A stretch of 64,000 nucleotides of DNA from Nguyenibacter vanlangensis (GTDB taxonomy: Bacteria > Pseudomonadota > Alphaproteobacteria > Acetobacterales > Acetobacteraceae), in contig NZ_CP152276.1 in NCBI RefSeq assembly GCF_038719015.1, forward strand, positions 2,151,501 through 2,215,500. Direction: 5' to 3'. The stretch's first letter is position 1. Each line of letters begins with the position of its first letter. Position numbers and translations under genes: made by a program. Positions 18,421-64,000 of this stretch are shown here, piece after piece. The notes beneath the pieces were generated by a model. That model saw nothing but the letters and a program-made list of their open reading frames with translations, had not been told where the DNA came from and did no database searches.

Positions 18421-18497
18421 GGACTCGTAGCTCAGCTGGATAGAGCGTCGCCCTCCGAAGGCGAAGGTCGAAGGTTCGAATCCTTTCGAGTCCGCCA
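18421..18497 (+). tRNA. tRNA-Arg (anticodon CCG)
   Basis: The cloverleaf folds cleanly: acceptor GGACTCG pairing with CGAGTCC, D-arm GCTC...GAGC, anticodon stem TCGCC/GGCGA with loop CTCCGAA (anticodon CCG), T-arm GAAGG-TTCGAAT-CCTTT, discriminator G and an encoded CCA at 18495-18497. A decayed island of toxin-antitoxin genes follows directly, so its 3' end may be or have been an integration target, although no second copy of the tRNA end was seen in this window. Confidence 0.97.
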
Positions 18498-52854: not shown

Positions 52855-52912
52855 TGGTGGAAGGGGTTGGATTCGAACCAACGTAGGCGCACGCCAGCGG
52901 ATTTACAGTCCG
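52855..52912 (-). tRNA. 3' fragment of tRNA-Tyr, attachment site of an integrated element
   Basis: On the minus strand the sequence runs from the anticodon arm (GGACTGTAAATCC, anticodon GTA) through a long variable arm, the T-arm (GTTGG-TTCGAAT-CCAAC) and acceptor CCCTTCC with ACCA at 52855. The 5' half is missing: right of about 52912 no D-arm or acceptor partner is found. Integrases use such 3' halves as core sites; the acceptor end points left, so chromosome lies to the left and the element to the right. Confidence 0.85.
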
Positions 52913-53003
52913 AGCTTTTGGGGCGCAGAAAGCCGCCATTTTTATATTTCTAATTTTAAATCAATGACTTAAATTCGGCATGACTCGGCTTAATTCGGCA
53001 GAA

Positions 53004-53044
53004 ATTGGCACAAGCCGGGGGGCGATTGGCACAAATTGGCACAA
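53004..53044. promoter_or_regulatory. ATTGGCACAA direct repeats, candidate integrase arm sites
   Basis: Three exact copies (53004-53013, 53025-53034 and 53035-53044) and a partial fourth lie about 90-130 bases inside the element from the tRNA fragment. TTCGGCA words repeat just before. The 52913-53445 interval holds no convincing gene; a short frame at 52980 consists of these repeats. Confidence 0.55.
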
Positions 53045-53445
53045 AAAATGGCACCGGACGCCAGCGGACTTCGCCCAATTTTCACATTATCGTGAACGCC
53101 ATTTCAACAGGTATATCGACGGCATCCGGTCAGGTCAGTCCGATGTCGTCGGTTTAATTCCGCAAAAGGCGGCATTTCCCGTTGCCTTTCGTCTCGATGT
53201 GGGCTACTGAAATTATTGACGTTTAGGCCGTGCGAACGGTCCGACGCTTGAGCAAGACGTGAACAGGGAAAGCCGGGTGAAAACCCCCGTGCGAGCCCAT
53301 GTCCCCCTGGCAGACGGTATTGGGGGCTGGGAGTGGGATGGTGGCGACCGTCATGACCGGTCGATAACGCAGCCAGCATCGCCTATAGACTGAAGGCCGC
53401 TCAAGCCTCTCGGACACACCTTCTCTGAAAGGAGGGTGGTTCGCC

Positions 53446-53757
53446 ATGCGTATCACGACCACTCTTGACCCCATTGTTCTGACAGAACGTCAAGCCGCCG
53501 CCCGCTTGGGCTTAAGCGCGGATTATCTTTATCGACTCCGAGTCGATGGGCCACGCCGCCGTTCGTCCGCCGAACAGCCCCTTCCCCCTGGCCCGACATA
53601 TCTCCGAATCGGCAGACGAATCGTCTATCGCCCTGCCGACCTAGACGCGTGGTTGGCCGCTCTGGCGGACGGCTCAGTCTACGCGCGGCAGTCGCGCGGT
53701 CGAGGCAGGCCGAGGAAGTCCGAATTCGCCGCGCGCCAACAACAGGCGGAGGGCTGA
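53446..53757 (+). CDS. AlpA/excisionase-like helix-turn-helix protein
   Basis: A 103-residue DNA-binding protein of the MerR/AlpA-type winged helix fold: LTERQAAARLGLSADYLYRL followed by TYLRIGRRIVYRPADLDAWL, the usual pattern of excisionases and AlpA regulators. A near-perfect AGGAGGGTGG site precedes ATG 53446. As the first gene inside the attachment site it is the natural candidate for the element's recombination directionality factor. The basic tail (RQSRGRGRPRKSE) may contact DNA. Confidence 0.82.
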   Translation: MRITTTLDPIVLTERQAAARLGLSADYLYRLRVDGPRRRSSAEQPLPPGPTYLRIGRRIVYRPADLDAWLAALADGSVYARQSRGRGRPRKSEFAARQQQAEG

Positions 53758-53760
53758 ACG

Positions 53761-53937
53761 ATGGCACGCAACCTGCCGCGCACAAGCCCGCACCCATGCC
53801 GACAGAGGGCACCCCCCCCCCGAGGCCACAGGTCGCGATTACGTAATCGCGACCTGACGACAGGGCGGTCAATCGAACAGCAAATCAGCAATAAGCCCGC
53901 TGTCACCGGCAGCGGGCAACGGGAAAGGTGTATCTAG
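53761..53937 (+). CDS. possible 58-residue basic protein
   Basis: ATG 53761 follows the HTH stop by 3 bases, but the frame spans a nine-C run and the 28-bp palindrome, and its product (rich in arginine and proline) has no family. It may be translated through coupling or may be non-coding. Confidence 0.25.
   Translation: MARNLPRTSPHPCRQRAPPPRGHRSRLRNRDLTTGRSIEQQISNKPAVTGSGQRERCI
53829..53856. repeat. 28-bp perfect palindrome
   Basis: Arms CAGGTCGCGATTAC and GTAATCGCGACCTG meet with no spacer. It lies about 80 bases after the excisionase-like gene and 80 before the next membrane gene. A gap-free palindrome of this length suggests a dimer-bound operator, a replication/transfer site or a cruciform. 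Confidence 0.8.
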
Positions 53938-54254
53938 TGAGCAAGAATAGCTTTCGCATCATTCGAGCAATTGCACTCGATGTTGTTAACGCTGTTGTTA
54001 ACGTTGTCGTCGGCATCTGCGTCATGTGCGTTGTTCTTCCAATCCTGGCCTTAATCGGATGGTTGACTAAGGACTGGGCTCAACAGCACATGCCCACATC
54101 TGGACTGTTCAGTGTCCTGTTTAGGAACTTTCCGCCGGAAGCCTTTGTGCCGTTTCTAATCGTCGTGCTCGCATGCTGCATTTTTTCTTGTGCGAGCAAA
54201 TTGTTAAGGGCGCGCGTTTGCGCGCAATGCCCCAATCGAATCAGGGAGAACTGA
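53937..54254 (+). CDS. small membrane protein of the element
   Basis: About 105 residues with two hydrophobic segments (VNVVVGICVMCVVLPILALI and FVPFLIVVLACCIFSCASKL). The start is GTG 53937 or GTG 53928, both after GGGAAAGG. The C-terminal tail ends CAQCPNRIREN with a CxxC pair. No family is recognised. Confidence 0.6.
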   Translation: MSKNSFRIIRAIALDVVNAVVNVVVGICVMCVVLPILALIGWLTKDWAQQHMPTSGLFSVLFRNFPPEAFVPFLIVVLACCIFSCASKLLRARVCAQCPNRIREN

Positions 54255-54257
54255 ACC

Positions 54258-54701
54258 ATGGGTGCGCAACTGACAGCCGAAGAAATCCGTAGCGTCTCCG
54301 ACCGCCTGGCCGGAGCCCTGGACTACAGAATTGACATTCGGGACATCGTGCAGGACGACGGAACACCACTGCACGCAGCGGCGACGTTCCCTGTCGGCAC
54401 ACGCCACGAAGAAACATTCGCGTTCAGTGCGGCGGTCGGCGGCGTTCTGGTGAACGGAAGAATGCTCGCGAACGATACCGGCTTCGCTCTTCTTGATGGC
54501 GCATGGCGGGCGACGTGCGGCGGGAGAGAAGTCGAACAGAAGGTTGCAGGGACCGGAACAATTGAAGATGCCGAATGGGTGCCGGTGGACTTACACCACC
54601 TGCACGGACGGGCGGGCAAGGAGGTGCGGGAATGGCTGGTTTCCGAGGCCGTCAGGTATCTCATCGAGACGCTAGATGCGGAACTTGCCAACCTCGCCTG
54701 A
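54258..54701 (+). CDS. hypothetical protein, 147 residues
   Basis: A soluble acidic protein starting MGAQLTAEEIRSVSDRLAGA with an AGGGAGAA site. Central strands (YRIDIRDIVQDDGTPLHAAA) and an acidic C-terminal helix. It follows the membrane gene by 3 bases. No family is recognised. Confidence 0.65.
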   Translation: MGAQLTAEEIRSVSDRLAGALDYRIDIRDIVQDDGTPLHAAATFPVGTRHEETFAFSAAVGGVLVNGRMLANDTGFALLDGAWRATCGGREVEQKVAGTGTIEDAEWVPVDLHHLHGRAGKEVREWLVSEAVRYLIETLDAELANLA

Positions 54702-54813
54702 CACCCAGCAAGCTAGGGTTAAGCGCCCTGGCTAACCCTGCCAGTCAGAAATCATCACAGGAACAGCACGGGAACGTTGAAATCATGCATCCCATGACTG
54801 TTCAATATAGAGA

Positions 54814-54961
54814 AAGCCCGCCCTTCCGGTCATCGGTCCAGCAAGACCTACGGAAAGAGCGGGCTTCAAAGAAGCGCGACGACGACGACGCGATGAGCAG
54901 AAGATAACCCCGCCATCGGCCGGCTTTCAACACTCATCGCACCAACGATGGGTGTTTTTTT
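54814..54961 (+). promoter_or_regulatory. attenuator-like leader before the putative rep gene
   Basis: A first stem AAGCCCGC/GCGGGCTT (54814-54821 and 54859-54866), further paired by TTCCG and CGGAA words, is followed by a second stem ACACTCATCG/CGATGGGTGT (54929-54938 and 54945-54954) and seven T. The T-run touches the ATG of the next gene (54962). It can be read as an intrinsic terminator for the upstream operon or as an attenuator in a copy-control leader. Confidence 0.6.
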
Positions 54962-56920
54962 ATGGGTGCGGACAGACGGCAGTTTTGGGTCGATGCGGAG
55001 GACCGGCAGCGGTTCGCATCGACCCATGCCGTCCAGGCTCCTGAAATCGAGATTGCCGGCTTTGCTCACAGTCAGGAAAGCGCGACGACCCGCGACATTG
55101 ATTTGGCGAGACGCATCAAAGAGAAGACCGGCTTTTCATTATTCGCGAGCAACCCTGCCGCAGTTTTCGACGCGGCAAGCATATCGCCATCAAAAATACC
55201 GGTATCCGCGCTTCTCGTGCGAAGCCGACTTTTTGAGACGCAAGCGGTGCGCGAAGCGGCGGACTGGGGAAAATGGTTCTCGGCATACTGCTCCGGGAAC
55301 GAGCGAGCGCGCCGCAACATCAAGCACATTCAGATTCGCATGACGGCAGTTGACCATGCACGTCATTCGGATGGTGTGCATGAAGTCAGACGCTTGCGGG
55401 CAGAAGGAAATCGAAATTACGGCTGCATGAAGCAGGCGCTCGACGACATGCGCAGGAAGAGCAAGTTGCTGCATGGCATCGTGTTCCCGCAATATTGCGG
55501 GACACACGACGTTTTGGAAAAAGGCGGCTGGATTGTTAAGCGGCATTACCATATCGGCATCGATATCGACATGAGCGAATTGTATACGCCTGAAGATTTT
55601 CAATTCATTCTGAACAAAATCAATAAGTATTTGGCCGCCAGAGGTTTTGAAGTTTACGTCCCCGAAAGTGAAGAAGACGAAGAAGAACAGGATGACGGGC
55701 GCGCAGGAAAGTATGCCTCGCCGAAGGTGAAGAAATGCGAAGACCTGGACCCCGAAGCTCTTCTTATTTATCATCTGGAAACAAGACAATGTAAGAATCT
55801 ATACGTGCCAATCGGTGATTATAAGTGCTGGCGGGCAGAAATGAACGACGGCGGGTTTCGGCCAAAATATGGAAAGGGTGGCACCAGCATTGAAATGCAG
55901 CCATTGCAGACCCGCGCGCCGAAGACATCATGCCGCCAGCCCGCTGCCCGCGCACTTGTTCACTATCGCGGCGACGGGTCGGAGTTAAGAACGAATCTCA
56001 TCATCGCGAACAACGGCGGCGTCGGCCTGAACCCCGCCGCGATTGAGGGGTGCGACCTAGACGACGATATCAAGCGCGCCCGCCATCTCGCCGACCAGTC
56101 CGTGGGGACGGCAATCCGGCGGTCGGGCGACGATGCGAAGACCGCGCTGGCGGACTGGCTTCGGTCACGTCTACCCAAATCTTATAACAACTCAGGAAAT
56201 GGTAACGCATGCTGTCCTATCCGTGAAGCTGTCCGCTCCCGGCCTTATGACGTCGCGCAAGTCATGAATGAAGCCCATGGCTATCTACCCGGTATCGTTC
56301 GGGCCGTCTCGACCGGCCGCCCAGCAGACGTGAGGGAGCGGCTGGCGGAGGTCGTCCAGGCAGCGCGGCGACGCTGGGCCTTCATCTCATATGTGCGCGA
56401 ACTGGCGACCGGAGAGACAGAAAAAGAGGCGGTAGACTGCGGAATATCGAGAGAGACGGAGAACGAATGGAGGAAGCGGGCTGGGCAGGTGCTTGATGAA
56501 ATCATCAATCCGCCGGTCCCTGCCAAGGCCGCCCGGCCTGCTTGTCTGCGCCTGTCGCCCAGGACACCGGCAGACCAGCCGAGCGCAGCGATAAACGAAC
56601 GCGCCGCGAGCAGCCCGAACGCCGAAGGCGGCGGGAATGATGCAGGCACATGGGCGCGGGTAATCGCCGACCAGCGGGCCGAGCATTCCGCCACCATCGC
56701 CGCCCGCCCAGCACCAGCACCGACAGAACTAATCGCAGCATATCGCAAGATGGCGAGCAGGGATTGTCGGGTCGGGTCGAGCGATTGGATGCGCATGCTC
56801 TCAGAAGAGACGGAGGCGTTCGAACGAGCCGAAGCAGCATGCCGAGCAGCGAACGACGACGTGCTTTTGAGCGAACTCATGTTCGAGCGCCGGAAGAGCA
56901 AGCAAGCGCGACAAGGGTGA
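54962..56920 (+). CDS. putative HUH-type replication/mobilisation protein
   Basis: A 652-residue protein. Near residues 122-132 a strand (HIQIRMTAVD) and then RHYHIGIDID (His195-Tyr196-His197) give the histidine-hydrophobic-histidine pattern of HUH endonucleases, followed by a helix with a candidate catalytic tyrosine (NKINKYLAARGF, Tyr223). An acidic run (ESEEDEEEQDD) follows. Near residue 490 a segment with helix-turn-helix character (TEKEAVDCGISRETENEWRK) could bind DNA. The start is uncertain: ATG 54962 has no binding site and follows a terminator-like stem. The assignment to HUH is inference. Confidence 0.5.
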   Translation: MGADRRQFWVDAEDRQRFASTHAVQAPEIEIAGFAHSQESATTRDIDLARRIKEKTGFSLFASNPAAVFDAASISPSKIPVSALLVRSRLFETQAVREAADWGKWFSAYCSGNERARRNIKHIQIRMTAVDHARHSDGVHEVRRLRAEGNRNYGCMKQALDDMRRKSKLLHGIVFPQYCGTHDVLEKGGWIVKRHYHIGIDIDMSELYTPEDFQFILNKINKYLAARGFEVYVPESEEDEEEQDDGRAGKYASPKVKKCEDLDPEALLIYHLETRQCKNLYVPIGDYKCWRAEMNDGGFRPKYGKGGTSIEMQPLQTRAPKTSCRQPAARALVHYRGDGSELRTNLIIANNGGVGLNPAAIEGCDLDDDIKRARHLADQSVGTAIRRSGDDAKTALADWLRSRLPKSYNNSGNGNACCPIREAVRSRPYDVAQVMNEAHGYLPGIVRAVSTGRPADVRERLAEVVQAARRRWAFISYVRELATGETEKEAVDCGISRETENEWRKRAGQVLDEIINPPVPAKAARPACLRLSPRTPADQPSAAINERAASSPNAEGGGNDAGTWARVIADQRAEHSATIAARPAPAPTELIAAYRKMASRDCRVGSSDWMRMLSEETEAFERAEAACRAANDDVLLSELMFERRKSKQARQG

Positions 56921-57002
56921 TGATGAGCAGGAATTCATTTGCAAAGTACAAATAAAAATTCACCTATAAATTGATAAAATCGAGTTTACGCAAAGTTTGC
57001 TG

Positions 57003-57030
57003 TACCAAATTCTATAGAATTTGGTATAAT
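57003..57030 (+). promoter_or_regulatory. 24-bp perfect palindrome overlapping a TATAAT box
   Basis: TACCAAATTCTA/TAGAATTTGGTA is a gap-free palindrome (57003-57026), and its last two bases begin TATAAT (57025-57030). The gene at 57098 starts about 68 bases later. A repressor sitting here would block the promoter. No good -35 box is seen at the usual spacing. Confidence 0.6.
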
Positions 57031-57097
57031 GACATCAGGACAGGACGAACGGGACTTTCCTCGTATCGTTTTCTGTACCGTAACTTCGGGGGCAATT

Positions 57098-57754
57098 ATG
57101 ATGAGTGAAGCCGAGACTGGTGCGAGAATAAGGCATCACATCAATGAAGCCTGGGTGGTGCTGATGGGGAAAAAGAAGGTGGATTACGGCATGATGAATC
57201 ATCACGTGGAGCATCACAAGCAGATTGCGGGGGCAATCGCGAGGGACGCGCTGGTGTCGAAGATTGGTCCGGAACGCTTGCAAGAGTGGAAAGACGCGGG
57301 AATGGACGCTCTCTCTGCAAGAGAGGACATTGGCAGGACGGCGGACATTGAACAGGAGTTGATAGAAGATGACTGCCCCATGACCGGAGCGCAAAGGCGG
57401 GAATGGCGTGAGGATTTGAGAAAAGCGAGAGATGAATACGAGACAAAAAAAGAGCATCTTCGAAATTTGAGGCTAGGCGTGGAAGGTGCCTTCGCGGGAT
57501 ATGGGGTGGATATTGTGGGGTGGGGATTGGGATTCATGTTGAAAGTAGCGGAGGTTAAATTAGAAGAAACGGAGGTAAAAATACGCGTGCTTGCGAATGA
57601 GTTTTGTGGCAATCCAAAAGAAGAAGATTTGGACCCCCTCGTAAGTGAGTCTAATAGGAGGAAGGTTGAACTAGACGTTCTGAAAGAAATTGCAGACGAG
57701 CGCGAGGAATATTATTTCTTTCCGAATTTCAGGCCGCAGTATGATGAGGATTGA
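57098..57754 (+). CDS. hypothetical coiled-coil-rich protein of the element
   Basis: A 218-residue protein from ATG 57098 (GGGGG upstream; the earlier ATG at 57029 overlaps the promoter). It starts MMSEAETGARIRHHINEAWV, has a histidine cluster (MNHHVEHHKQI), a central long charged helix region (REWREDLRKARDEYETKKEHLR) and a glycine-rich hydrophobic stretch (GAFAGYGVDIVGWGLGFML). No family is recognised. It is followed after 1 base by the recombinase gene and shares its transcript. Confidence 0.65.
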   Translation: MMSEAETGARIRHHINEAWVVLMGKKKVDYGMMNHHVEHHKQIAGAIARDALVSKIGPERLQEWKDAGMDALSAREDIGRTADIEQELIEDDCPMTGAQRREWREDLRKARDEYETKKEHLRNLRLGVEGAFAGYGVDIVGWGLGFMLKVAEVKLEETEVKIRVLANEFCGNPKEEDLDPLVSESNRRKVELDVLKEIADEREEYYFFPNFRPQYDED

Positions 57755-57755
57755 C

Positions 57756-58460
57756 ATGACAACATACGGATATGCCCGCGTCAGCACGCCCCGTCAGAAC
57801 ATTACCCCGCAAGTAAAAGCCTTGCGGGCGGCTGGCATCCCGAAAGACCGCATCTTTCAAGACAAATCGACCGGACGCGTTGTGAACCGTCCGGGCCTGA
57901 ACGGGCTTCTTGCCGCCATTCAGCCGGGCGACATCGTGATGTGTTGGAAAGTGGACCGCCTCGGGCGCACATTCATCGAATGCGCCCAGGTTGCCGCCCG
58001 ACTGATGGAATGTAAGGTAAATATCAAGGCCCTGACCGGCGGTGCTGACTCAAGCACCCCGGAAGGCCGATTCATGCTGCATGCCCTGCTAGCCGTCGCC
58101 GAACTCGAAACAGAACTTCGGGCCGAACGCCAGGCCGCCGGGCTTGAAGACGCCCGCGAGAAGCGCGCAAAGGCAGGCCGTCAAGGCGTCGGGGGTGGCA
58201 GACGCCCGACGCTGACATCCCGCCAGCGACAGCATGCAATGCAGATGCGGGCGGAGGGCCGGTCTATCACCGAAATCCAGCGACTTTTCAATGTCAGCCG
58301 AGGCGTCGCCCAGCGTGCCGCAGCAGGCCGGGAAACGACGCTTGATGACGAGGACTTCAAGACGCCCGCAGACCGGGAGCGCCTGCGCCGGGCTAACGCG
58401 ATGCTCGACCGGCTGGAACCTCGGCAGATTGACATTGAAGATGCAATCCGGGCGGCATGA
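57756..58460 (+). CDS. serine recombinase (resolvase/invertase family)
   Basis: A 234-residue recombinase: catalytic Ser10 in YGYARVSTPRQ, conserved arginines in VDRLGRTF and the GRFMLHALLAVAELETELRA helix, and a C-terminal helix-turn-helix (SITEIQRLFNVSRGVAQRAA). It is a small resolvase rather than a large integrase, so it likely resolves element dimers or inverts a segment. ATG 57756 has GAGGA upstream; the frame before it belongs to the previous gene. Confidence 0.92.
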   Translation: MTTYGYARVSTPRQNITPQVKALRAAGIPKDRIFQDKSTGRVVNRPGLNGLLAAIQPGDIVMCWKVDRLGRTFIECAQVAARLMECKVNIKALTGGADSSTPEGRFMLHALLAVAELETELRAERQAAGLEDAREKRAKAGRQGVGGGRRPTLTSRQRQHAMQMRAEGRSITEIQRLFNVSRGVAQRAAAGRETTLDDEDFKTPADRERLRRANAMLDRLEPRQIDIEDAIRAA

Positions 58461-58468
58461 GAATCGGC

Positions 58469-58509
58469 TTGACTCTTTGTTTACGTACATTTACCGTATG
58501 TGTACGTAA
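58469..58509 (+). promoter_or_regulatory. promoter with inverted-repeat operator for the RHH-YfbU gene
   Basis: TTGACT (58469-58474) and TACCGT (58492-58497) are 17 bases apart. An inverted repeat TTACGTACA/TGTACGTAA (58481-58489 and 58501-58509, 11-base spacer) overlaps the -10 box. It lies 18 bases before the start codon of a protein with a ribbon-helix-helix domain, pointing to autoregulation. Confidence 0.65.
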
Positions 58510-58527
58510 CCAAAGCGCAGGTGTCCA

Positions 58528-59238
58528 ATGCCTCCAAAGTCAGAACGATTTGAACTCCGCCTAGATGAGTCATTCCTTGCACGGGTAGACGCCTGGCGGC
58601 TTTCCCGACCAAGCGAACCATCGAGAGCCGAAGCCGTGAGGTCTTTGGTTGAAATGGGTCTTCAATCATATTCTGCGGATAACATGAACTTTTCCAGTCC
58701 GGAAAAGCTAATGACCGTGATGTTGGCTGAAATTCACCGAGCGGTTGTGAAAAAACCCGAGATTGACCCTACCTTCATCATCGAAGCCTTGTGCGGCGCA
58801 GATTACTGGGCAATTCCTTTCAGGTATTCGGGGATTTTCCCACCGAATAGCTGCCCTCCGGAAGTCGTAAAGGAGGTCATCGACATTCTGGACATGTGTG
58901 ACTTTCTAGAGAGTAGCATCCAAAACCTTCCCGAAGGAGAGATGAGGCGTCTAGATGAGCATTTCTCTTATGACTTTGACAAGATATTCGTTGGTTTCGA
59001 CGGCAATAACGAACATTGGCATATGGGCGTCGTCAGAATGCTTACAGGCCAACTGGAGCGCTTTTCCCGTTTCAAAGACAGGGAACTCAATAGTCATTCT
59101 CCGATAACACTTGAAAGATATCGGCGCATGTTTTCGGTATTTGCCCCCCTGCGCCTCGAAAGTATGGGAAGACGGCTTTCTTTCCAGGCACTCGAACGTA
59201 TTCTAGAGGCTGGCTATGGCAGAACCGTCAAAGGTTGA
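58528..59238 (+). CDS. ribbon-helix-helix / YfbU fusion protein
   Basis: A 236-residue protein. The first 50 residues form a ribbon-helix-helix (KSERFELRLDESFLARVDAW...SRAEAVRSLVEMGLQ). The rest matches E. coli YfbU: PPEVVKEVIDILDMCDFLES, then FVGFDGNNEHWHMGVVRMLT and ERYRRMFSVFAPLRLESMG. YfbU has been linked to toxin-like or stress functions, but its role is not established. The fusion resembles a repressor joined to an effector. The inverted repeat upstream is its probable operator. Intact. Confidence 0.8.
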   Translation: MPPKSERFELRLDESFLARVDAWRLSRPSEPSRAEAVRSLVEMGLQSYSADNMNFSSPEKLMTVMLAEIHRAVVKKPEIDPTFIIEALCGADYWAIPFRYSGIFPPNSCPPEVVKEVIDILDMCDFLESSIQNLPEGEMRRLDEHFSYDFDKIFVGFDGNNEHWHMGVVRMLTGQLERFSRFKDRELNSHSPITLERYRRMFSVFAPLRLESMGRRLSFQALERILEAGYGRTVKG

Positions 59239-59259
59239 CCGCGTTACCCCCACATACCA

Positions 59260-59319
59260 CATATCCCCAGCGGCTCCCTTGGCTACGCTCAAAGACGCCC
59301 TTCCGCCGCTGGGGATATG
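59260..59319. repeat. 15-bp inverted repeat with 30-base loop
   Basis: CATATCCCCAGCGGC and GCCGCTGGGGATATG are perfect complements. It lies in the convergent gap after the RHH-YfbU gene. A second small palindrome, AGTCAGC-TT-GCTGACT on the minus strand (59416-59431), ends 14 bases before the next gene's stop. Either may terminate transcription; no T-runs are present. Confidence 0.65.
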
Positions 59320-59445
59320 CTCCGGCTACGCCTACGGCCCTGGCGGGCTGGAATGCGGGGACAACGCTACCCGCTATGTGCCGGGACAACGCAACGCATC
59401 CGCGATGCGAAAGGAAGTCAGCAAGCTGACTATTTATCATCGTCT

Positions 59446-59943
59446 TCACGAGCCGGGCCAGTGCCATTCCTTGCCTTTGCGAACGGTGATTTCCTTCAGC
59501 CTTTCGACGGTATCGCGTCCAGCGACGACATATGCTAGCCAGAGCATGTCGAACGCGGCCTCTGAATGTCGGCCAGCTTTTGAGTTCTTCTGTATACGCG
59601 ACATCAGTGCAGTCGTGTCGTCTGTTGCGACTTCACCCGTAATCACGGCCATGAACTCATCCGTTGCGTCAACTCCATTGTGAAACAGCCGCGTCCACGG
59701 TCCGTCAGGCGTCGGGATTACCACGCCATCTGCGCTCAAGCCGTAAACGATTGAGTCTGTATTTAAGCCGCCCGCTCTAATACTGACCGTGCGAAGTTCC
59801 CCTTTCTCGTGGACTTGCGGCCGGGAGAGCTTCGCGAATCTTATCCAGTCCAGCGCATCGACCCACTCGCCAGCACTATTCTTGAAGAACAGTGTCGGAA
59901 TGTCACCGTTCATCCCGCGCATTTCTTCTTTTGTCTCAATCAC
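59446..59943 (-). CDS. hypothetical protein of the element, 165 residues
   Basis: A soluble protein (MIETKEEMRGMNGDIPTLFF) with an NSAGEWVDALDWIRFAKLSR segment and DGVVIPTPDGPWTRLFHNGV. No family is recognised. Its start overlaps the stop of the next gene upstream by 4 bases (ATGA), so it is the third member of a tightly coupled cluster with the two paralogues at 59940 and 60490. Confidence 0.65.
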   Translation of the reverse strand: MIETKEEMRGMNGDIPTLFFKNSAGEWVDALDWIRFAKLSRPQVHEKGELRTVSIRAGGLNTDSIVYGLSADGVVIPTPDGPWTRLFHNGVDATDEFMAVITGEVATDDTTALMSRIQKNSKAGRHSEAAFDMLWLAYVVAGRDTVERLKEITVRKGKEWHWPGS

Positions 59944-60497
59944 GCTAAATCTCCCACATCCAGTTCCCCCCAGCCGCCCTCCGCAAAATCCGGCAAGTCC
60001 GGCCTGTCTTCCTCGCCAGCCACGTCCACCCCGCCTTCCCGCGCCACCGCATCGAGAGCCCGCAGCACATCCGCCATCACGTCCCCGGCGGTCCGCGCAA
60101 CCGACGCCCGCACCGCATCATCACACCGAAACCGCACCACGCCGCCCGCGCTGGCCGAGAACAGCGCGGGCAGAATCTCCGGGTCCGCCCCCGGCCAGCC
60201 CTTTCCCAGCACAATCGCGAACTCACGATGCGCACCGGCATACAGAACCCCGATTGCGTGCGGCCGGCACAGCGCGTCATCGGCCCATATTTCCAAGAAA
60301 ATGACGCCACCCGCACCCGGCGGCAGACGGAAATCATGGCGGGGGCGACGGGTTGCGCGCAGTCGTCCGACCGCCGCACTGTCGAACGTCAGCGTTTCCG
60401 ATGCCTGCCGGGCGGCCTGCTGGACGGCATCGACCAGACCGGTTGCGGCGCAGGGATACAGAAGCGGAGGCGGGCCGGACTTGAGAGAATCAAGCAT
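59940..60497 (-). CDS. hypothetical protein, paralogue of the gene at 60490
   Basis: A 185-residue protein sharing a core with its neighbour: RLRATRRPRHDFRLPPGAGG, VIFLEIWADDALCRPHAIGV and LGKGWPGADPEILPALFSAS align with the corresponding segments of the upstream protein. The start ATG 60497 lies 8 bases inside the upstream gene. Function unknown; a tandem duplication in a coupled operon. Confidence 0.7.
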   Translation of the reverse strand: MLDSLKSGPPPLLYPCAATGLVDAVQQAARQASETLTFDSAAVGRLRATRRPRHDFRLPPGAGGVIFLEIWADDALCRPHAIGVLYAGAHREFAIVLGKGWPGADPEILPALFSASAGGVVRFRCDDAVRASVARTAGDVMADVLRALDAVAREGGVDVAGEEDRPDLPDFAEGGWGELDVGDLA

Positions 60498-60993
60498 TCT
60501 GCTTCTCACGTGCAACCGCATCCAGCGCCCGCAGAGCGTCGCCCAGCAGGCCGCCGGCTTGTGTGAATGTTCGCCAATCGCCGCCCCTGTCCCTGTCTTC
60601 TGCAAGCCTCATTCCACCGGCGTGGTATTCGATGCGGAACAATGCAGGTAACAGATGTGGGTCGCGCCCTGGCCAGCCGCGACCTTCTGTGATGGAGAAC
60701 ATATTGTGGTTGCAATTATATAAAATCCCAACGGTCTCGAACGGGTGGCGTGCGTTGTTGCTCCAAATTTCCAAATAGATGATGGCTGCACCGGAAGGCA
60801 GGAGGAAATCCCGGCGTGGGCGGCGGACTGTGCGCAGTCGGCGGATTTTTCCCTCTCCGAACTCATGCGTTTCAGTCACCAGCCGGGCGGCCTTCGTTGT
60901 GCCATCTTGCAACAGCTCTTCCCAATGGGTGTGGGCGTGGGCGGGGTCAATCAGCGGCAATCGGCCTTTCTTGATTGTATCGAGCATTGTCAT
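60490..60993 (-). CDS. hypothetical protein, paralogue of the gene at 59940
   Basis: A 167-residue protein with the shared core RLRTVRRPRRDFLLPSGAAI, IYLEIWSNNARHPFETVGIL and EGRGWPGRDPHLLPALFRIE, and a C-terminal LGDALRALDAVAREKQ tail also present in its neighbour. Start ATG 60993. The 243-bp gap upstream, to the DotA/TraY gene, holds no clear frame. No family is recognised. Confidence 0.7.
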   Translation of the reverse strand: MTMLDTIKKGRLPLIDPAHAHTHWEELLQDGTTKAARLVTETHEFGEGKIRRLRTVRRPRRDFLLPSGAAIIYLEIWSNNARHPFETVGILYNCNHNMFSITEGRGWPGRDPHLLPALFRIEYHAGGMRLAEDRDRGGDWRTFTQAGGLLGDALRALDAVAREKQNA

Positions 60994-61236
60994 GCGCCGT
61001 CCCCTTCCTTGTCATTTCATGAATTATAGTACGCCCGACATGCCATCCGTATGAGAAATCGGCCACGCGCGCTATGCAATCGACCGGATATAGGCCGGCA
61101 ATTCCACGTTTCTCTATCGTATTTCATACCGGTATCATGCCGTCATCATCACGGCATGCTCACCGCCTGGGCTTGTCGCCCTGGCGGTTGCGCAAGGGCA
61201 CCCGGCAGGGCGGCGAACCGCCCCGCGTGGCGCGGG

Positions 61237-63561
61237 TCAGGACGACACTGGGCGTTCGGTCGTCGCCATCCCGCCGCCAGCCCCGCCAGCGCCTTGGCCG
61301 CCTTCTTCACTGCCACCCTTTCCGCCCGCACCTTTCTCGCCAACTTTCGCAATACCGTGCCCAGCGCCGCCAGCCGTCCGCCCCACGACCCCGCCGACAA
61401 AGTGAGAAGGACTTTCGGTGCGCAGGCTGTCAGAAGCCCATCCGATGATTTTTCCCGCCAGTTCCGGCATGCTGGTCATCAAGCGCAAGCTTGCGGTCGT
61501 AATTTTCCACGTCATCCATGCCTCCAAAACCAGCATTACGACCGCCCCGATAATGCCCGGTCCGCTGTCCGCAGTCCCCGCCAGCGCCGCCACGGAGAAC
61601 GAGCGAGACACCAGCCAGACGCCCGCGTTCATGACTTGCAGCGAGAGAATCAGGCCGAAAACGGTCAGGGGGATTCTCAAGAACAGCGATAGGAGCAGCA
61701 CATATCCGGACTTCTGCTGTTCGTTGATGAATTCCGACCCATCCATGCGAACGTGCATGAATGCCCAGACGGGTAACACCATGAACGCTTCAACGACGGT
61801 AATCAGAATACCGATTGATGCGAACGTAAACTCAACGAACGGCATCATGGGAATAATGTAGGCATGCTCAACACCGACCAGCAGCAGCATGCCGAGAACA
61901 ATGCCGACGAACGACAGCGGACCAGACGCGACCGCCCCCGCAAGCGCCCCCGCCCCAGCAGGCCCGCCGAGCATGGTGCCCGCCGCCAGCCCGCCCAGGA
62001 TGACGACCGAAATCGTGTTCAGCACCTCGTTTCCGAAGTCGGCAAGCTGCTGGATAGGCGAACCGTTAGCCGGGTTGATGCCAACTAAGTATTTGTTTCC
62101 TATACTAAAAATCTTGTCGAACAGCCATTTTTGGACCCCATGCAGGCTTGCCGTGCTGCCTTGGGTCGAGCCAGCCAGGGCGGCATTCCGCAGGTCCGCA
62201 GTGTCGTCGCTGGCGTTCCACTGAATCGTCAGGGGCTGCAAGATGGATTCACCGGCCCTCACGTAGTTCCCGGCATAACTCCATGTTTTCAGGTCGATAT
62301 GCTCCGACCTGTCAGTGTTCGACATTGGAGGAATGGACACTTGCGGAATATCCGACGCAAGCGAGTATGCGGCGGATTGAAGACGCGCGATGGACATATA
62401 GAACATGCCTGCCGTCAGCCACCCATATTTGTTGCCGTCATTCAGAAATGAAGAAACATTACTATTAGTTCCGCCCTGAACATCAATCAATACCTGTCCG
62501 TCCGCCTGAAATTCGGTATCAAGGGTGGACTTAGCATCGCTAATTGACTGTATGAAGGCCGTCCGGGCGACATCCGGTATTTGATTCGTCGGCATTTGGC
62601 CTTCGTAATTCGCGGGGTTTTTCTGATAGTCGATGAACTGTGCGATGCCCCGGCTGATAGCCGACCGCGCTTGTTCAATCGCGGCAAGCCGGGATTTATC
62701 GAACGCCGTAACCGTAGAATCGCCACCGCTGCCGACCGCGAACGTCCCCGAAATCGTGCCGCACACACCGTAATTCCATGTGATGAGATGCCGGTTTGAC
62801 TGCGCGGAAGACGTCAGATTACCGCCGGTAAACCGGGCGGCCATCGAGTTATACAGATTGCCCAGCGATACCTCGATATTTTCGCCTGTTGTGCCCCCGA
62901 CCGTCTCGCCCGGCATCGTGGTCGGCAGGTCGAACAGCGGGCCGGTCAGTGCGCCATCGGAAATCAGGGCTTGTCTGCATAGTTCTGCTTCCGTGAAATC
63001 GCGCACCAATGCCCCGGTAGCGGGCAGCGGAGGCGCATTCAGAGACGGAGCGACGAGGCCGGTTGAATACGTGGACCAGACGAGATTCCCCAGCGAGCCG
63101 CCGTAAAGAGCGACATAGATTACAAGGACTTGTGCGAGACAGACCCCCTTCGCAGCCGGTGCCAGCATCCCGAACCCGAAGCAGAGCCGCAACGGAGCCC
63201 ACACGGTATGCCAGTTCTGCCCGAGAATCGTGCCTTCATGAGCCGTTGCGACGGTGCCCGAGATGGCGTGCCAGGACAGCATCGCCACGGCGACCGCCGA
63301 CAGGACGGCGAGGAACCCGCCCGAGGCAGCAAACAACCCCTGCGCCGCCTGGCTTGCGTTGCCATTCAGCGGTCCGACGCCCGGGAAAATGGATTCCAAA
63401 CTTTGCCGCCACCAGTCGCTTGCGCATGGCGCGGTCAGGGCTTGCGTCAAAAGGGTCCCCGAGGCGCTGCATGTCGCCTCGTCTGCCGTAATCGACGCGG
63501 CCGCATGCGCCAGGGCCGGGAACGCGGCGAAAAGGATGGCGATGGAGACAAATTTTTTCAT
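61237..63561 (-). CDS. DotA/TraY-family conjugative transfer protein
   Basis: A 774-residue membrane protein of the type IVB (Dot/Icm, IncI Tra) secretion machinery. It has a signal peptide (KKFVSIAILFAAFPALAHA), a DotA-like N-terminal segment (SDWWRQSLESIFPG, then LSWHAISGTVATAHEGTILG and NWHTVWAPLRLCFGFGMLAP), several later membrane helices (SVVILGGLAAGTMLGGPAGA; ILITVVEAFMVLPVWAFMHV) and a glycine-rich tail. DotA/TraY is an inner-membrane component of the channel. It overlaps the small upstream gene by 4 bases. Confidence 0.88.
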   Translation of the reverse strand: MKKFVSIAILFAAFPALAHAAASITADEATCSASGTLLTQALTAPCASDWWRQSLESIFPGVGPLNGNASQAAQGLFAASGGFLAVLSAVAVAMLSWHAISGTVATAHEGTILGQNWHTVWAPLRLCFGFGMLAPAAKGVCLAQVLVIYVALYGGSLGNLVWSTYSTGLVAPSLNAPPLPATGALVRDFTEAELCRQALISDGALTGPLFDLPTTMPGETVGGTTGENIEVSLGNLYNSMAARFTGGNLTSSAQSNRHLITWNYGVCGTISGTFAVGSGGDSTVTAFDKSRLAAIEQARSAISRGIAQFIDYQKNPANYEGQMPTNQIPDVARTAFIQSISDAKSTLDTEFQADGQVLIDVQGGTNSNVSSFLNDGNKYGWLTAGMFYMSIARLQSAAYSLASDIPQVSIPPMSNTDRSEHIDLKTWSYAGNYVRAGESILQPLTIQWNASDDTADLRNAALAGSTQGSTASLHGVQKWLFDKIFSIGNKYLVGINPANGSPIQQLADFGNEVLNTISVVILGGLAAGTMLGGPAGAGALAGAVASGPLSFVGIVLGMLLLVGVEHAYIIPMMPFVEFTFASIGILITVVEAFMVLPVWAFMHVRMDGSEFINEQQKSGYVLLLSLFLRIPLTVFGLILSLQVMNAGVWLVSRSFSVAALAGTADSGPGIIGAVVMLVLEAWMTWKITTASLRLMTSMPELAGKIIGWASDSLRTESPSHFVGGVVGRTAGGAGHGIAKVGEKGAGGKGGSEEGGQGAGGAGGGMATTERPVSS

Positions 63562-63923
63562 GACTTATTGCTCCGAAATTTTGGCAGCATGTCGGTTCCT
63601 AGATACGACCGGAACGACATCAGCGAGCGCGTCCGAAACTGATAGTTTGCAAAGCCGCTTTTGAGCGCCTGGACAGAGCAATAAAGACAAGCCGAGGCCG
63701 CGATGATGGCGGTGCTGTAATCGCCGTCACCAGCGCGCGCGCCGCAAAGCCCGAGAAGCGGAAATACGGGCGCAGCAGATAGCCAGAACAGCCACGCCGA
63801 AACACGCGTTCTGCGCTCAATTTCGGGGGCACTAATAGCATAGACGCGCGCCGCAACTTTGAACCGTTCGGCAGGGTCATTTGATTCTGTCGGCAGGGTT
63901 TGAACCGGCTGCTTTTTGAACAT
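63558..63923 (-). CDS. small conjugation-associated membrane protein, possibly TraX-like
   Basis: 121 residues from ATG 63923: MFKKQPVQTLPTESNDPAER, then two hydrophobic segments (SAWLFWLSAAPVFPLLGLC and TAIIAASACLYCSVQALKSG), and FANYQFRTRSLMSFRSYLGT near the end. It overlaps the DotA/TraY start (ATGA). The same frame stays open to the right window edge (ADDILASAGAIKRQVVGPVL before the ATG), so the gene may be longer and only partly inside the window. The TraX-like label rests on position and topology only. Confidence 0.55.
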   Translation of the reverse strand: MFKKQPVQTLPTESNDPAERFKVAARVYAISAPEIERRTRVSAWLFWLSAAPVFPLLGLCGARAGDGDYSTAIIAASACLYCSVQALKSGFANYQFRTRSLMSFRSYLGTDMLPKFRSNKS

Positions 63924-64000
63924 GCTATTGAAGCGTAAAACGGGACCCACGACTTGTCTTTTTATCGCGCCCGCTGACGCAAGAATATCGTCCGCGCCCG

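What the first reader, a model, noticed from the sequence alone, without database searches (positions are those of the whole stretch)
52855..64000. Left end of an integrative conjugative element in tRNA-Tyr
A minus-strand 3' half of tRNA-Tyr (52855-52912) has no 5' half. Its acceptor end points left, so the element lies to the right. Inside it are repeats of arm-site type, an excisionase-like HTH, a candidate HUH protein, a resolvase and a DotA/TraY gene, a combination expected of an ICE with a type IVB-like transfer system. Type IVB ICEs in this group of bacteria appear sparsely described.
Basis: partly seen in the sequence, partly recalled or inferred. Interest (0 to 1): 0.8.

Follow-up and report, generated by a model that had tools for sequence, protein, structure and literature searches.

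The report
Conjugation hitchhiker carrying one channel gene
An 18-kb DNA passenger inserted in a tyrosine tRNA gene of an acetic acid bacterium lacks its own transfer machine but carries one or two parts of somebody else's, probably so that it can borrow and alter a helper's DNA-transfer channel.

Summary
The left end is real. The 58-bp tRNA-Tyr 3' fragment at 52855-52912 has an identical copy inside an intact tRNA-Tyr 17.8 kb to the right, next to a tyrosine integrase. The element is not an ICE. It encodes integrase, excisionase-like protein, candidate oriT, MOBQ-type relaxase and a probable HUH replicase. Of a type IVB system only DotA/TraY is recognised, preceded by a small IcmV/TraX-like protein. 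No DotI and no convincing DotB were found in the genome. It is an integrative mobilizable element (IME).

Sister elements with the same plan sit at tRNA-Tyr and tRNA-Glu of a Gluconobacter that also has a separate IVB system. TraY is the most constrained gene within both pairs compared (dN/dS 0.065-0.11). Lone TraY also occurs on small plasmids: 0 of 9 chosen had DotI or DotB, and two have an ExcA-like neighbour.

Best reading: an IVB counterpart of SGI1, whose own TraG remodels the helper's pore and defeats entry exclusion. IME identity is firm. The mechanism is inferred and the TraX assignment weak.

The parts
52855..52912 (-). attL: 58-bp copy of the 3' part of tRNA-Tyr
   Evidence: 100% identical to the 3' part of the intact tRNA-Tyr that lies beyond the window at L003:18194-18251
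53005..53045 (+). left arm-type repeats TTGGCACAA (53005, 53026, 53036)
53446..53757 (+). excisionase-like HTH protein (103 aa)
   Evidence: HTH_17 5.8e-8; TIGR01764 8.8e-4, below cut-off
53937..54254 (+). small protein with two predicted membrane helices (105 aa), unknown
   Evidence: hydropathy only
54962..56920 (+). probable HUH-type replication initiator (652 aa): HYH and YxxxK kept
   Evidence: alignment with two sister elements, 40-42%; no family match; AlphaFold model too poor to use
57101..57754 (+). unknown protein (217 aa)
   Evidence: no family match
57756..58460 (+). serine recombinase (resolvase/invertase type)
   Evidence: PF00239 2.9e-33
58528..59238 (+). YfbU-domain protein
   Evidence: PF03887 1e-15; relative in L071 (62%)
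59940..60605 (-). conserved gene downstream of traY (p221), no predicted membrane helix, unknown; paralogue at 60490-60993
   Evidence: 60-61% in sister elements; hydropathy
61237..63561 (-). DotA/TraY (774 aa), the only confident type IVB apparatus protein
   Evidence: TIGR04346 1.5e-82; DotA of the solved structure 9ngy, profile E 2.8e-29
63558..64000 (-). TraX/IcmV-like small membrane protein (155 aa), overlapping the traY start by 4 bp; the gene runs 25 bases beyond the window (L003:11058-11525)
   Evidence: sub-threshold IcmV 0.016, and 0.0077 for its second copy; position and size; weak

Best explanation
This is a 17.8-kb integrative mobilizable element of an Acetobacteraceae chromosome. 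Integrase and excisionase insert and excise it at the 3' end of tRNA-Tyr (the att repeats and genes are shown; excision is inferred). A MOBQ-type relaxase nicks an oriT beside its own gene (inferred; the oriT candidate is supported by covariation). A probable HUH protein lets the circle replicate (inferred). It has no mating channel; a resident or incoming conjugative element with a type IVB system must supply one (inferred). The element's own TraY, with its small TraX/IcmV-like partner, is inserted into that helper's inner-membrane complex. This gives the element an advantage over the helper and escape from the helper's entry exclusion, of which TraY is a part in IncI1 and IncM plasmids. SGI1 does the same to IncC plasmids with TraG/TraH/TraN (inferred by analogy).
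For: Two att copies and an intact tRNA-Tyr; integrase and relaxase; DotA/TraY. No DotI in the own genome, while the NF038072 model finds matches in 29 of 299 family genomes, none over its curated cut-off. Four elements in two genera share relaxase and p123-(TraX)-TraY, and no other IVB gene was recognised in the stretches held. TraY has the lowest dN/dS within both pairs compared: 0.112 and 0.065, against 0.23-0.24 for the relaxase. Gluconobacter sp. P1C6_b holds two such IMEs and, on other contigs, DotB, C, G, H, I, L and IcmB relatives with their own TraY, 24% identical to the IME's. Lone TraY also occurs on small plasmids: 0 of 9 with DotI or DotB. In two of those TraY is followed by an ExcA-like gene (NF033891 E 0.0012, below cut-off; 29% between the two). 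[quoted passage not shown] SGI1 precedent, with TraG only 37% identical to the helper's: PMC5389848 (passages). Amino-acid differences between the two TraY copies of this genome cluster at residues 304-363 (18 of 56; 0 of 5000 permutations).
Against: No experiment, expression or excision data. TraX is identified only by sub-threshold hits (E 0.008-0.16). A profile comparison with the X. fragariae TraX finds nothing, and its model is unusable. IME TraY is only about 24-25% identical to the conjugative TraY of the family that were compared and lies outside their main clade, so function in such a helper is not assured. No ExcA-like gene was recognised in the IME. The clustering of changes is not seen between the two Gluconobacter copies (1067 of 5000 permutations as high). 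No helper was found in this genome.
Confidence: 0.58

Rival explanations
1. It is a decayed ICE: traX-traY are leftovers of a lost type IVB system with no present role.
For: Only one or two of the roughly 20 genes of an IVB system are present. A truncated relative (78% over 250 aa) sits near tRNA-Glu in G025. The second copy in this genome has no integrase or Rep of this kind within the 60 kb searched.
Against: Four intact traY copies in two genera keep the same neighbours; TraY dN/dS 0.065-0.11, lower than the relaxase; the IME-type TraY form one branch.
Confidence: 0.1
2. The element's TraX-TraY act as a weapon or brake: mixed into a helper's channel they block its transfer, or protect the host against incoming IVB plasmids (fertility inhibition), without helping the element's own transfer.
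For: A divergent TraY could poison a foreign complex; this would also fit lone TraY on small plasmids.
Against: Low dN/dS and conservation next to the oriT/relaxase module suggest use in transfer; the SGI1 precedent is a working subunit.
Confidence: 0.2
3. It is a true ICE whose remaining transfer genes lie elsewhere or are too diverged to be recognised.
For: IVB systems of alphaproteobacteria are diverged (e.g. 25-28% for DotG/H/I of A. persici against Kozakia).
Against: The element is bounded at 17.8 kb by its att sites. Its main ORFs (about 16) were scanned with Pfam and ten proteins with NCBIfam; none is a DotI, DotB, DotO/VirB4 or coupling ATPase.
Confidence: 0.04
4. An ordinary IME; TraY serves some unrelated membrane function.
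For: No direct data on function.
Against: Match to conjugative TraY over positions 3-656 of 656 and to DotA of the solved structure in two stretches; found with relaxases on unrelated plasmids (pYL19, pPA2047).
Confidence: 0.08

Closest known systems
Salmonella genomic island 1 (SGI1) family (PMC5389848, passages; other papers by listing)
   Same: IME at a conserved chromosomal site; mobilised in trans; no full T4SS but carries homologues of a few channel subunits, including the one implicated in entry exclusion; own replication (listing)
   Different: SGI1 remodels the F-type T4SS of IncC (TraN/H/G) and sits at trmE; here the parts belong to a type IVB system (TraY, perhaps TraX), the site is tRNA-Tyr and the relaxase is MOBQ-type; helper and regulation unknown
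Type IVB conjugative systems (IncI1 R64/ColIb-P9, IncM pCTX-M3) and the Dot/Icm system
   Same: TraY/DotA family member; a small membrane protein gene just before TraY
   Different: all other IVB genes unrecognised in the element; TraY about 25% identical to the conjugative relatives compared in the same bacterial family
Small plasmids with a lone TraY (X. fragariae pYL19, P. aeruginosa pPA2047, A. hydrophila pGES5_045096, linear Klebsiella/Salmonella plasmids)
   Same: TraY without DotI/DotB
   Different: replicating plasmids rather than tRNA-integrated; TraY in other branches of the tree; some carry ExcA-like or pilin genes
MOBQ mobilizable elements
   Same: MobA/MobL relaxase next to a hairpin-bearing intergenic region
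   Different: added TraX-TraY operon; relaxase below the MobQ equivalog cut-off

Membership tests
Integrative conjugative element (type IVB) | site-specific integration with att repeats | tested here: met
   58-bp repeats, integrase
Integrative conjugative element (type IVB) | complete self-encoded T4SS (DotB/C/D/G/H/I/L/O homologues) | tested here: not met
   only TraY and a TraX-like gene recognised between the att sites; no DotI in the genome
Integrative mobilizable element | integrase plus relaxase/oriT, no T4SS | tested here: met
   oriT only a candidate
Integrative mobilizable element | excision and helper-dependent transfer | not testable with these tools
   needs circular-junction PCR and matings
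SGI1 family | integration at trmE (listing) and F-type TraN/H/G genes | tested here: not met
   integrates in tRNA-Tyr; no F-type TraN/H/G match among the proteins scanned
SGI1 family | (works like) own copies of helper channel subunits kept by selection | tested here: inconclusive
   TraY intact with dN/dS 0.065-0.11; that it works in a helper's channel is untested
DotA/TraY family (TIGR04346) | score above the curated cut-off (100 bits) | tested here: met
   278 bits, positions 3-656 of 656
IcmV / TraX | score above the curated cut-off (100 bits) | tested here: not met
   15-16 bits, E 0.016 and 0.0077; position and size only
MobQ relaxase (NF041496) | score above the curated cut-off (200 bits) | tested here: not met
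   105.7 bits, E 2.5e-30; passes Pfam MobA_MobL
HUH replication initiator | HUH motif and catalytic YxxxK in the HUH fold | tested here: inconclusive
   motifs invariant in 3 sequences; model pLDDT 36; no family hit. The motif definition is recalled

The most novel reading that the evidence does not exclude
There is a general class of conjugation satellites, spanning chromosomal IMEs in acetic acid bacteria, mobilizable plasmids of Xanthomonas and Pseudomonas, IncP-6-like plasmids and linear plasmids of Enterobacteriaceae. Each carries a private TraY (sometimes with a TraX-like, ExcA-like or pilin gene), which swaps into the type IVB channel of whatever helper is present, favours the satellite's DNA and blinds the helper's entry exclusion: the IVB equivalent of SGI1's TraG trick, evolved several times.
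Probability: 0.4. Interest if true: 0.8.

Novelty: new variant of a known kind. Interest (0 to 1): 0.6.

Why it matters
SGI1 is the worked-out case I know of in which a mobilizable island rebuilds its helper's mating channel. If TraX-TraY do this for type IVB systems, channel remodelling by satellites is a convergent strategy. Plasmids now typed as 'non-mobilizable' or merely 'mobilizable' could then carry an overlooked device for getting past entry exclusion. The Gluconobacter strain with two such elements and a separate IVB system makes this testable in a harmless host.

Tried and rejected
Rejected: ICE with a full IVB system (see membership test). LPD7 as a mark of lone-TraY elements: it is in the relaxases of all four elements, of pYL19 and of pPA2047, and in proteins without a relaxase match on three Klebsiella plasmids. 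It is also in an IncL/M relaxase (just under its cut-off), two other MOBP relaxases and a relaxase from G217, a genome without a TraY match as far as the list of matches shows, and it is absent from the one NikB tested. It proves nothing. A clean empty site was not shown: in the relatives the DNA behind tRNA-Tyr differs, and at most 31 bp of left flank match beside the tRNA.

Failed: genome-contig scan with two sequences (the second, worked); protein-database search with the Rep; AlphaFold models of TraX (pLDDT 35) and Rep (36), so no fold search was run; TraX profile comparison. The first hairpin register was miscounted and corrected. p68 was read one base off; its values there are void. It was read correctly. 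Not in print: searches (open-licence PMC only; listings, plus passages of some papers) showed no paper on lone DotA/TraY in mobilizable elements. PMC5487458 on an IncP-6 plasmid does not hold the words DotA or TraY (word search of the main text).
Full report
1. Observation. The minus-strand 58-bp tRNA-Tyr 3' fragment at 52855-52912 is real. In the window's own genome (G000, one contig of 4,751,768 bases) it has one other match, identical over 58 bp, at C1:2222194-2222251. That copy lies inside an intact tRNA-Tyr(gta) (L003:18194-18279; L003 + 52500 = window coordinate). The element therefore runs from 52855 to 70751, and an excised circle would be 17,839 bp. An rlmB-like gene follows on the far side of the tRNA (SpoU methylase). 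TTGGCACAA-type repeats lie inside both ends.

2. Content. Between the att sites: excisionase-like HTH, a 652-aa protein with HYH and YxxxK kept in two relatives, serine recombinase, YfbU-domain protein, several unknowns, DotA/TraY (774 aa), a 155-aa protein just upstream and overlapping it, p123, p68, a 1079-aa MobA/MobL relaxase with LPD7, p237, p111 and a 371-aa tyrosine integrase next to the tRNA. No secretion ATPase was found among the proteins scanned. TraY matches DotA of the solved structure 9ngy by profile (E 2.8e-29).

Parts beyond the window, in window coordinates extended to the right (L003 + 52500): p123 64044-64415(-); oriT candidate 64510-64611 with hairpins 64541-64559 and 64574-64592; p68 64611-64817(+), two predicted membrane helices; relaxase 64828-68067(+), PF03389 3e-25 and LPD7 2.3e-7, MobQ model 2.5e-30 but under its cut-off; p237 68090-68803(-); p111 69109-69444(+); integrase 69461-70576(-), PF00589 1.6e-14; right arm repeats 70567-70621; intact tRNA-Tyr 70694-70779(-), of which 70694-70751 is attR.

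3. No transfer system found in the genome. DotI: PF11393 none and NF038072 none, while NF038072 finds matches in 29 of 299 genomes of the family, none over its curated cut-off. DotB: only partial matches of at most 79 bits, with a model that also rings in 13 of 14 control genomes. DotA/TraY: two copies. The second, at C1:3678616-3680577, sits with a relaxase (81%), the 155-aa gene, p123 and a topoisomerase III. No integrase or Rep of this kind was found in the 60 kb around it. An unrelated integrase stands beside an intact tRNA-Glu about 18 kb away. It is a second, perhaps incomplete, element.

4. Sister elements. A scan with an alignment of nine TraY (A2) gave four loci. Two are in Gluconobacter sp. 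P1C6_b. L072 is inserted at tRNA-Tyr (a full tRNA, and a second stretch that matches its 3' part), with an integrase 69% identical. L071 lies behind tRNA-Glu; its other end was not located. Both carry relaxase, p123, the 155-aa gene (52-53%), TraY (77-78%), p221 and the Rep-like gene (40%). The first 341 aa of the relaxase find 3 of 395 genomes of the order at E <= 1e-30 (at most five candidates scored per genome). These are the own genome, G324 (two copies at 70-71%, apparently this same Gluconobacter by contig numbers and positions) and a distant 39-43% match in G217. In the genus, 14 genomes including the own had the rlmB-like gene. In 12 of the 13 others an intact tRNA-Tyr could be read beside it, and none of the 13 loci showed this integrase within the roughly 1.3 kb held, including one of the same species.

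5. oriT candidate. The stretch between p123 and p68 is conserved in the four elements. Two hairpins keep 14 of 14 pairs in 4 of 4 sequences, with 5 pairs changed on both sides. Covariation score and cells paired are not reached by any of 500 shuffles and collapse when the partner is slid. The number of pairs changed on both sides is reached by 19 of 500 shuffles, and the number of further pair types by 345 of 500. Only four sequences were used and the hairpins were picked from them, so this is support, not proof.

6. Selection. Nei-Gojobori dN/dS between the two copies in this genome: TraY 0.112, 155-aa gene 0.136, p237 0.193, relaxase 0.232, p123 0.352, p221 0.431. Between the Gluconobacter copies: TraY 0.065, p123 0.141, Rep 0.164, 155-aa gene 0.172, relaxase 0.237. 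Between genera, where synonymous sites are near saturation: integrase 0.097, TraY 0.103, 155-aa gene 0.238, relaxase 0.296. TraY is thus the most constrained gene compared within either pair; the integrase could not be compared within pairs. Amino-acid changes between the two TraY of this genome cluster in residues 304-363 (18 of 56, 0 of 5000 permutations) without an excess of synonymous change. The Gluconobacter pair shows no such cluster (1067 of 5000).

7. TraY tree. In 59 sequences ten IME-type TraY form one branch (SH-aLRT 100). The alphaproteobacterial group that holds 30 of the 32 rows I labelled conjugative is another (100). The IME branch joins Acetobacter, Azospirillum and Methylorubrum TraY. 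The label 'conjugative' was given to all family loci without checking each. On the IME side, the A. persici megaplasmid has DotG/H/I near its TraY, so IVB systems with the nearer type of TraY exist. The Azospirillum genome there has no DotI match and only a weak DotB match. Quick method and several long branches limit this tree; L074 was left out.

8. A candidate helper beside the elements. The Gluconobacter genome has DotI and DotB on contigs C14 (44.6 kb) and C9 (61 kb), with IcmB, DotC, DotD, DotG, DotH, DotL and TraW-like relatives and a third TraY, 24% identical to the IME's. That both contigs are one plasmid is assumed.

9. Lone TraY elsewhere. tblastn with the IME TraY finds 283 of 72,556 plasmid records. 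Of 60 rows spread down the list, 20 are under 50 kb. I fetched nine under 45 kb, chosen by hand: DotI in 0 of 9, DotB in 0 of 9. Among six larger records, also chosen by hand, DotI in 5 and DotB in 6. pYL19 has a TraX-like gene (NF033887 E 5.4e-15, below its cut-off), TraY and a 169-aa gene related (29% over 114 aa) to the gene behind TraY on a P. syringae plasmid, which itself resembles ExcA (E 0.0012, below its cut-off). In 398 Pseudomonadota genomes nine had a TraY match over at least 600 of 656 positions; four of these had DotI and five, this genome included, did not.

10. Mechanism. In IncI1 R64 and IncM pCTX-M3, TraY is needed for transfer and, with ExcA, makes up the entry-exclusion system (PMC6112013, PMC8125031, passages). 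SGI1 carries TraG/H/N that replace those of its IncC helper, raise its own transfer and defeat entry exclusion, although its TraG is only 37% identical to the helper's (PMC5389848, passages). The element here has the same logic with the IVB exclusion target, TraY. Shown: att sites, gene content, lack of a recognisable channel, conservation and selection. Inferred: helper dependence, insertion of TraY into a helper's channel, escape from exclusion. Not settled: whether the 155-aa protein is TraX/IcmV (E 0.008-0.16).

11. Verdict. 'ICE with a type IVB-like transfer system' should read 'IME carrying isolated type IVB subunits'. The host is a member of the Acetobacteraceae, inferred from its relatives (same family as a genome whose contig matches the Kozakia plasmid in length); the tools did not name it.

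Noticed in passing
L011:13482-15560 (G000:C1:3681482-3683560): The second element in the genome carries a DNA topoisomerase III directly after its p221 gene; none was seen in the first element.
   Followed up: partly
window 61309-61578 (traY residues 662-751): No synonymous and at most two amino-acid differences between the two traY copies of this genome here, although the rest differs: perhaps recent gene conversion.
   Followed up: no
L067, L068: Two Klebsiella plasmids with a lone TraY also carry two annotated type 4 pilus major pilin genes each, as if pilus and TraY were both supplied to a helper.
   Followed up: no
L065, L066: Plasmids pPA2047 and pGES5_045096 (rep_cluster_573; IncP-6 by recall), which carry Tn4401 or GES-5 cargo, have a 960-962-aa TraY and an M23 metallopeptidase but no DotI or DotB match.
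   Followed up: partly
L052 (G022:C3): A second, nearly identical (98%) Kozakia-type traY with three upstream IVB genes; the DotI match of that genome lies on another contig.
   Followed up: no
L054:9875-10690: A truncated IME-type TraY (78% over 250 aa) with an integrase-like ORF remains near tRNA-Glu in genome G025: a decayed relative.
   Followed up: partly
window 18421-18497: The window's only intact tRNA is tRNA-Arg(ccg); its surroundings were not examined.
   Followed up: no
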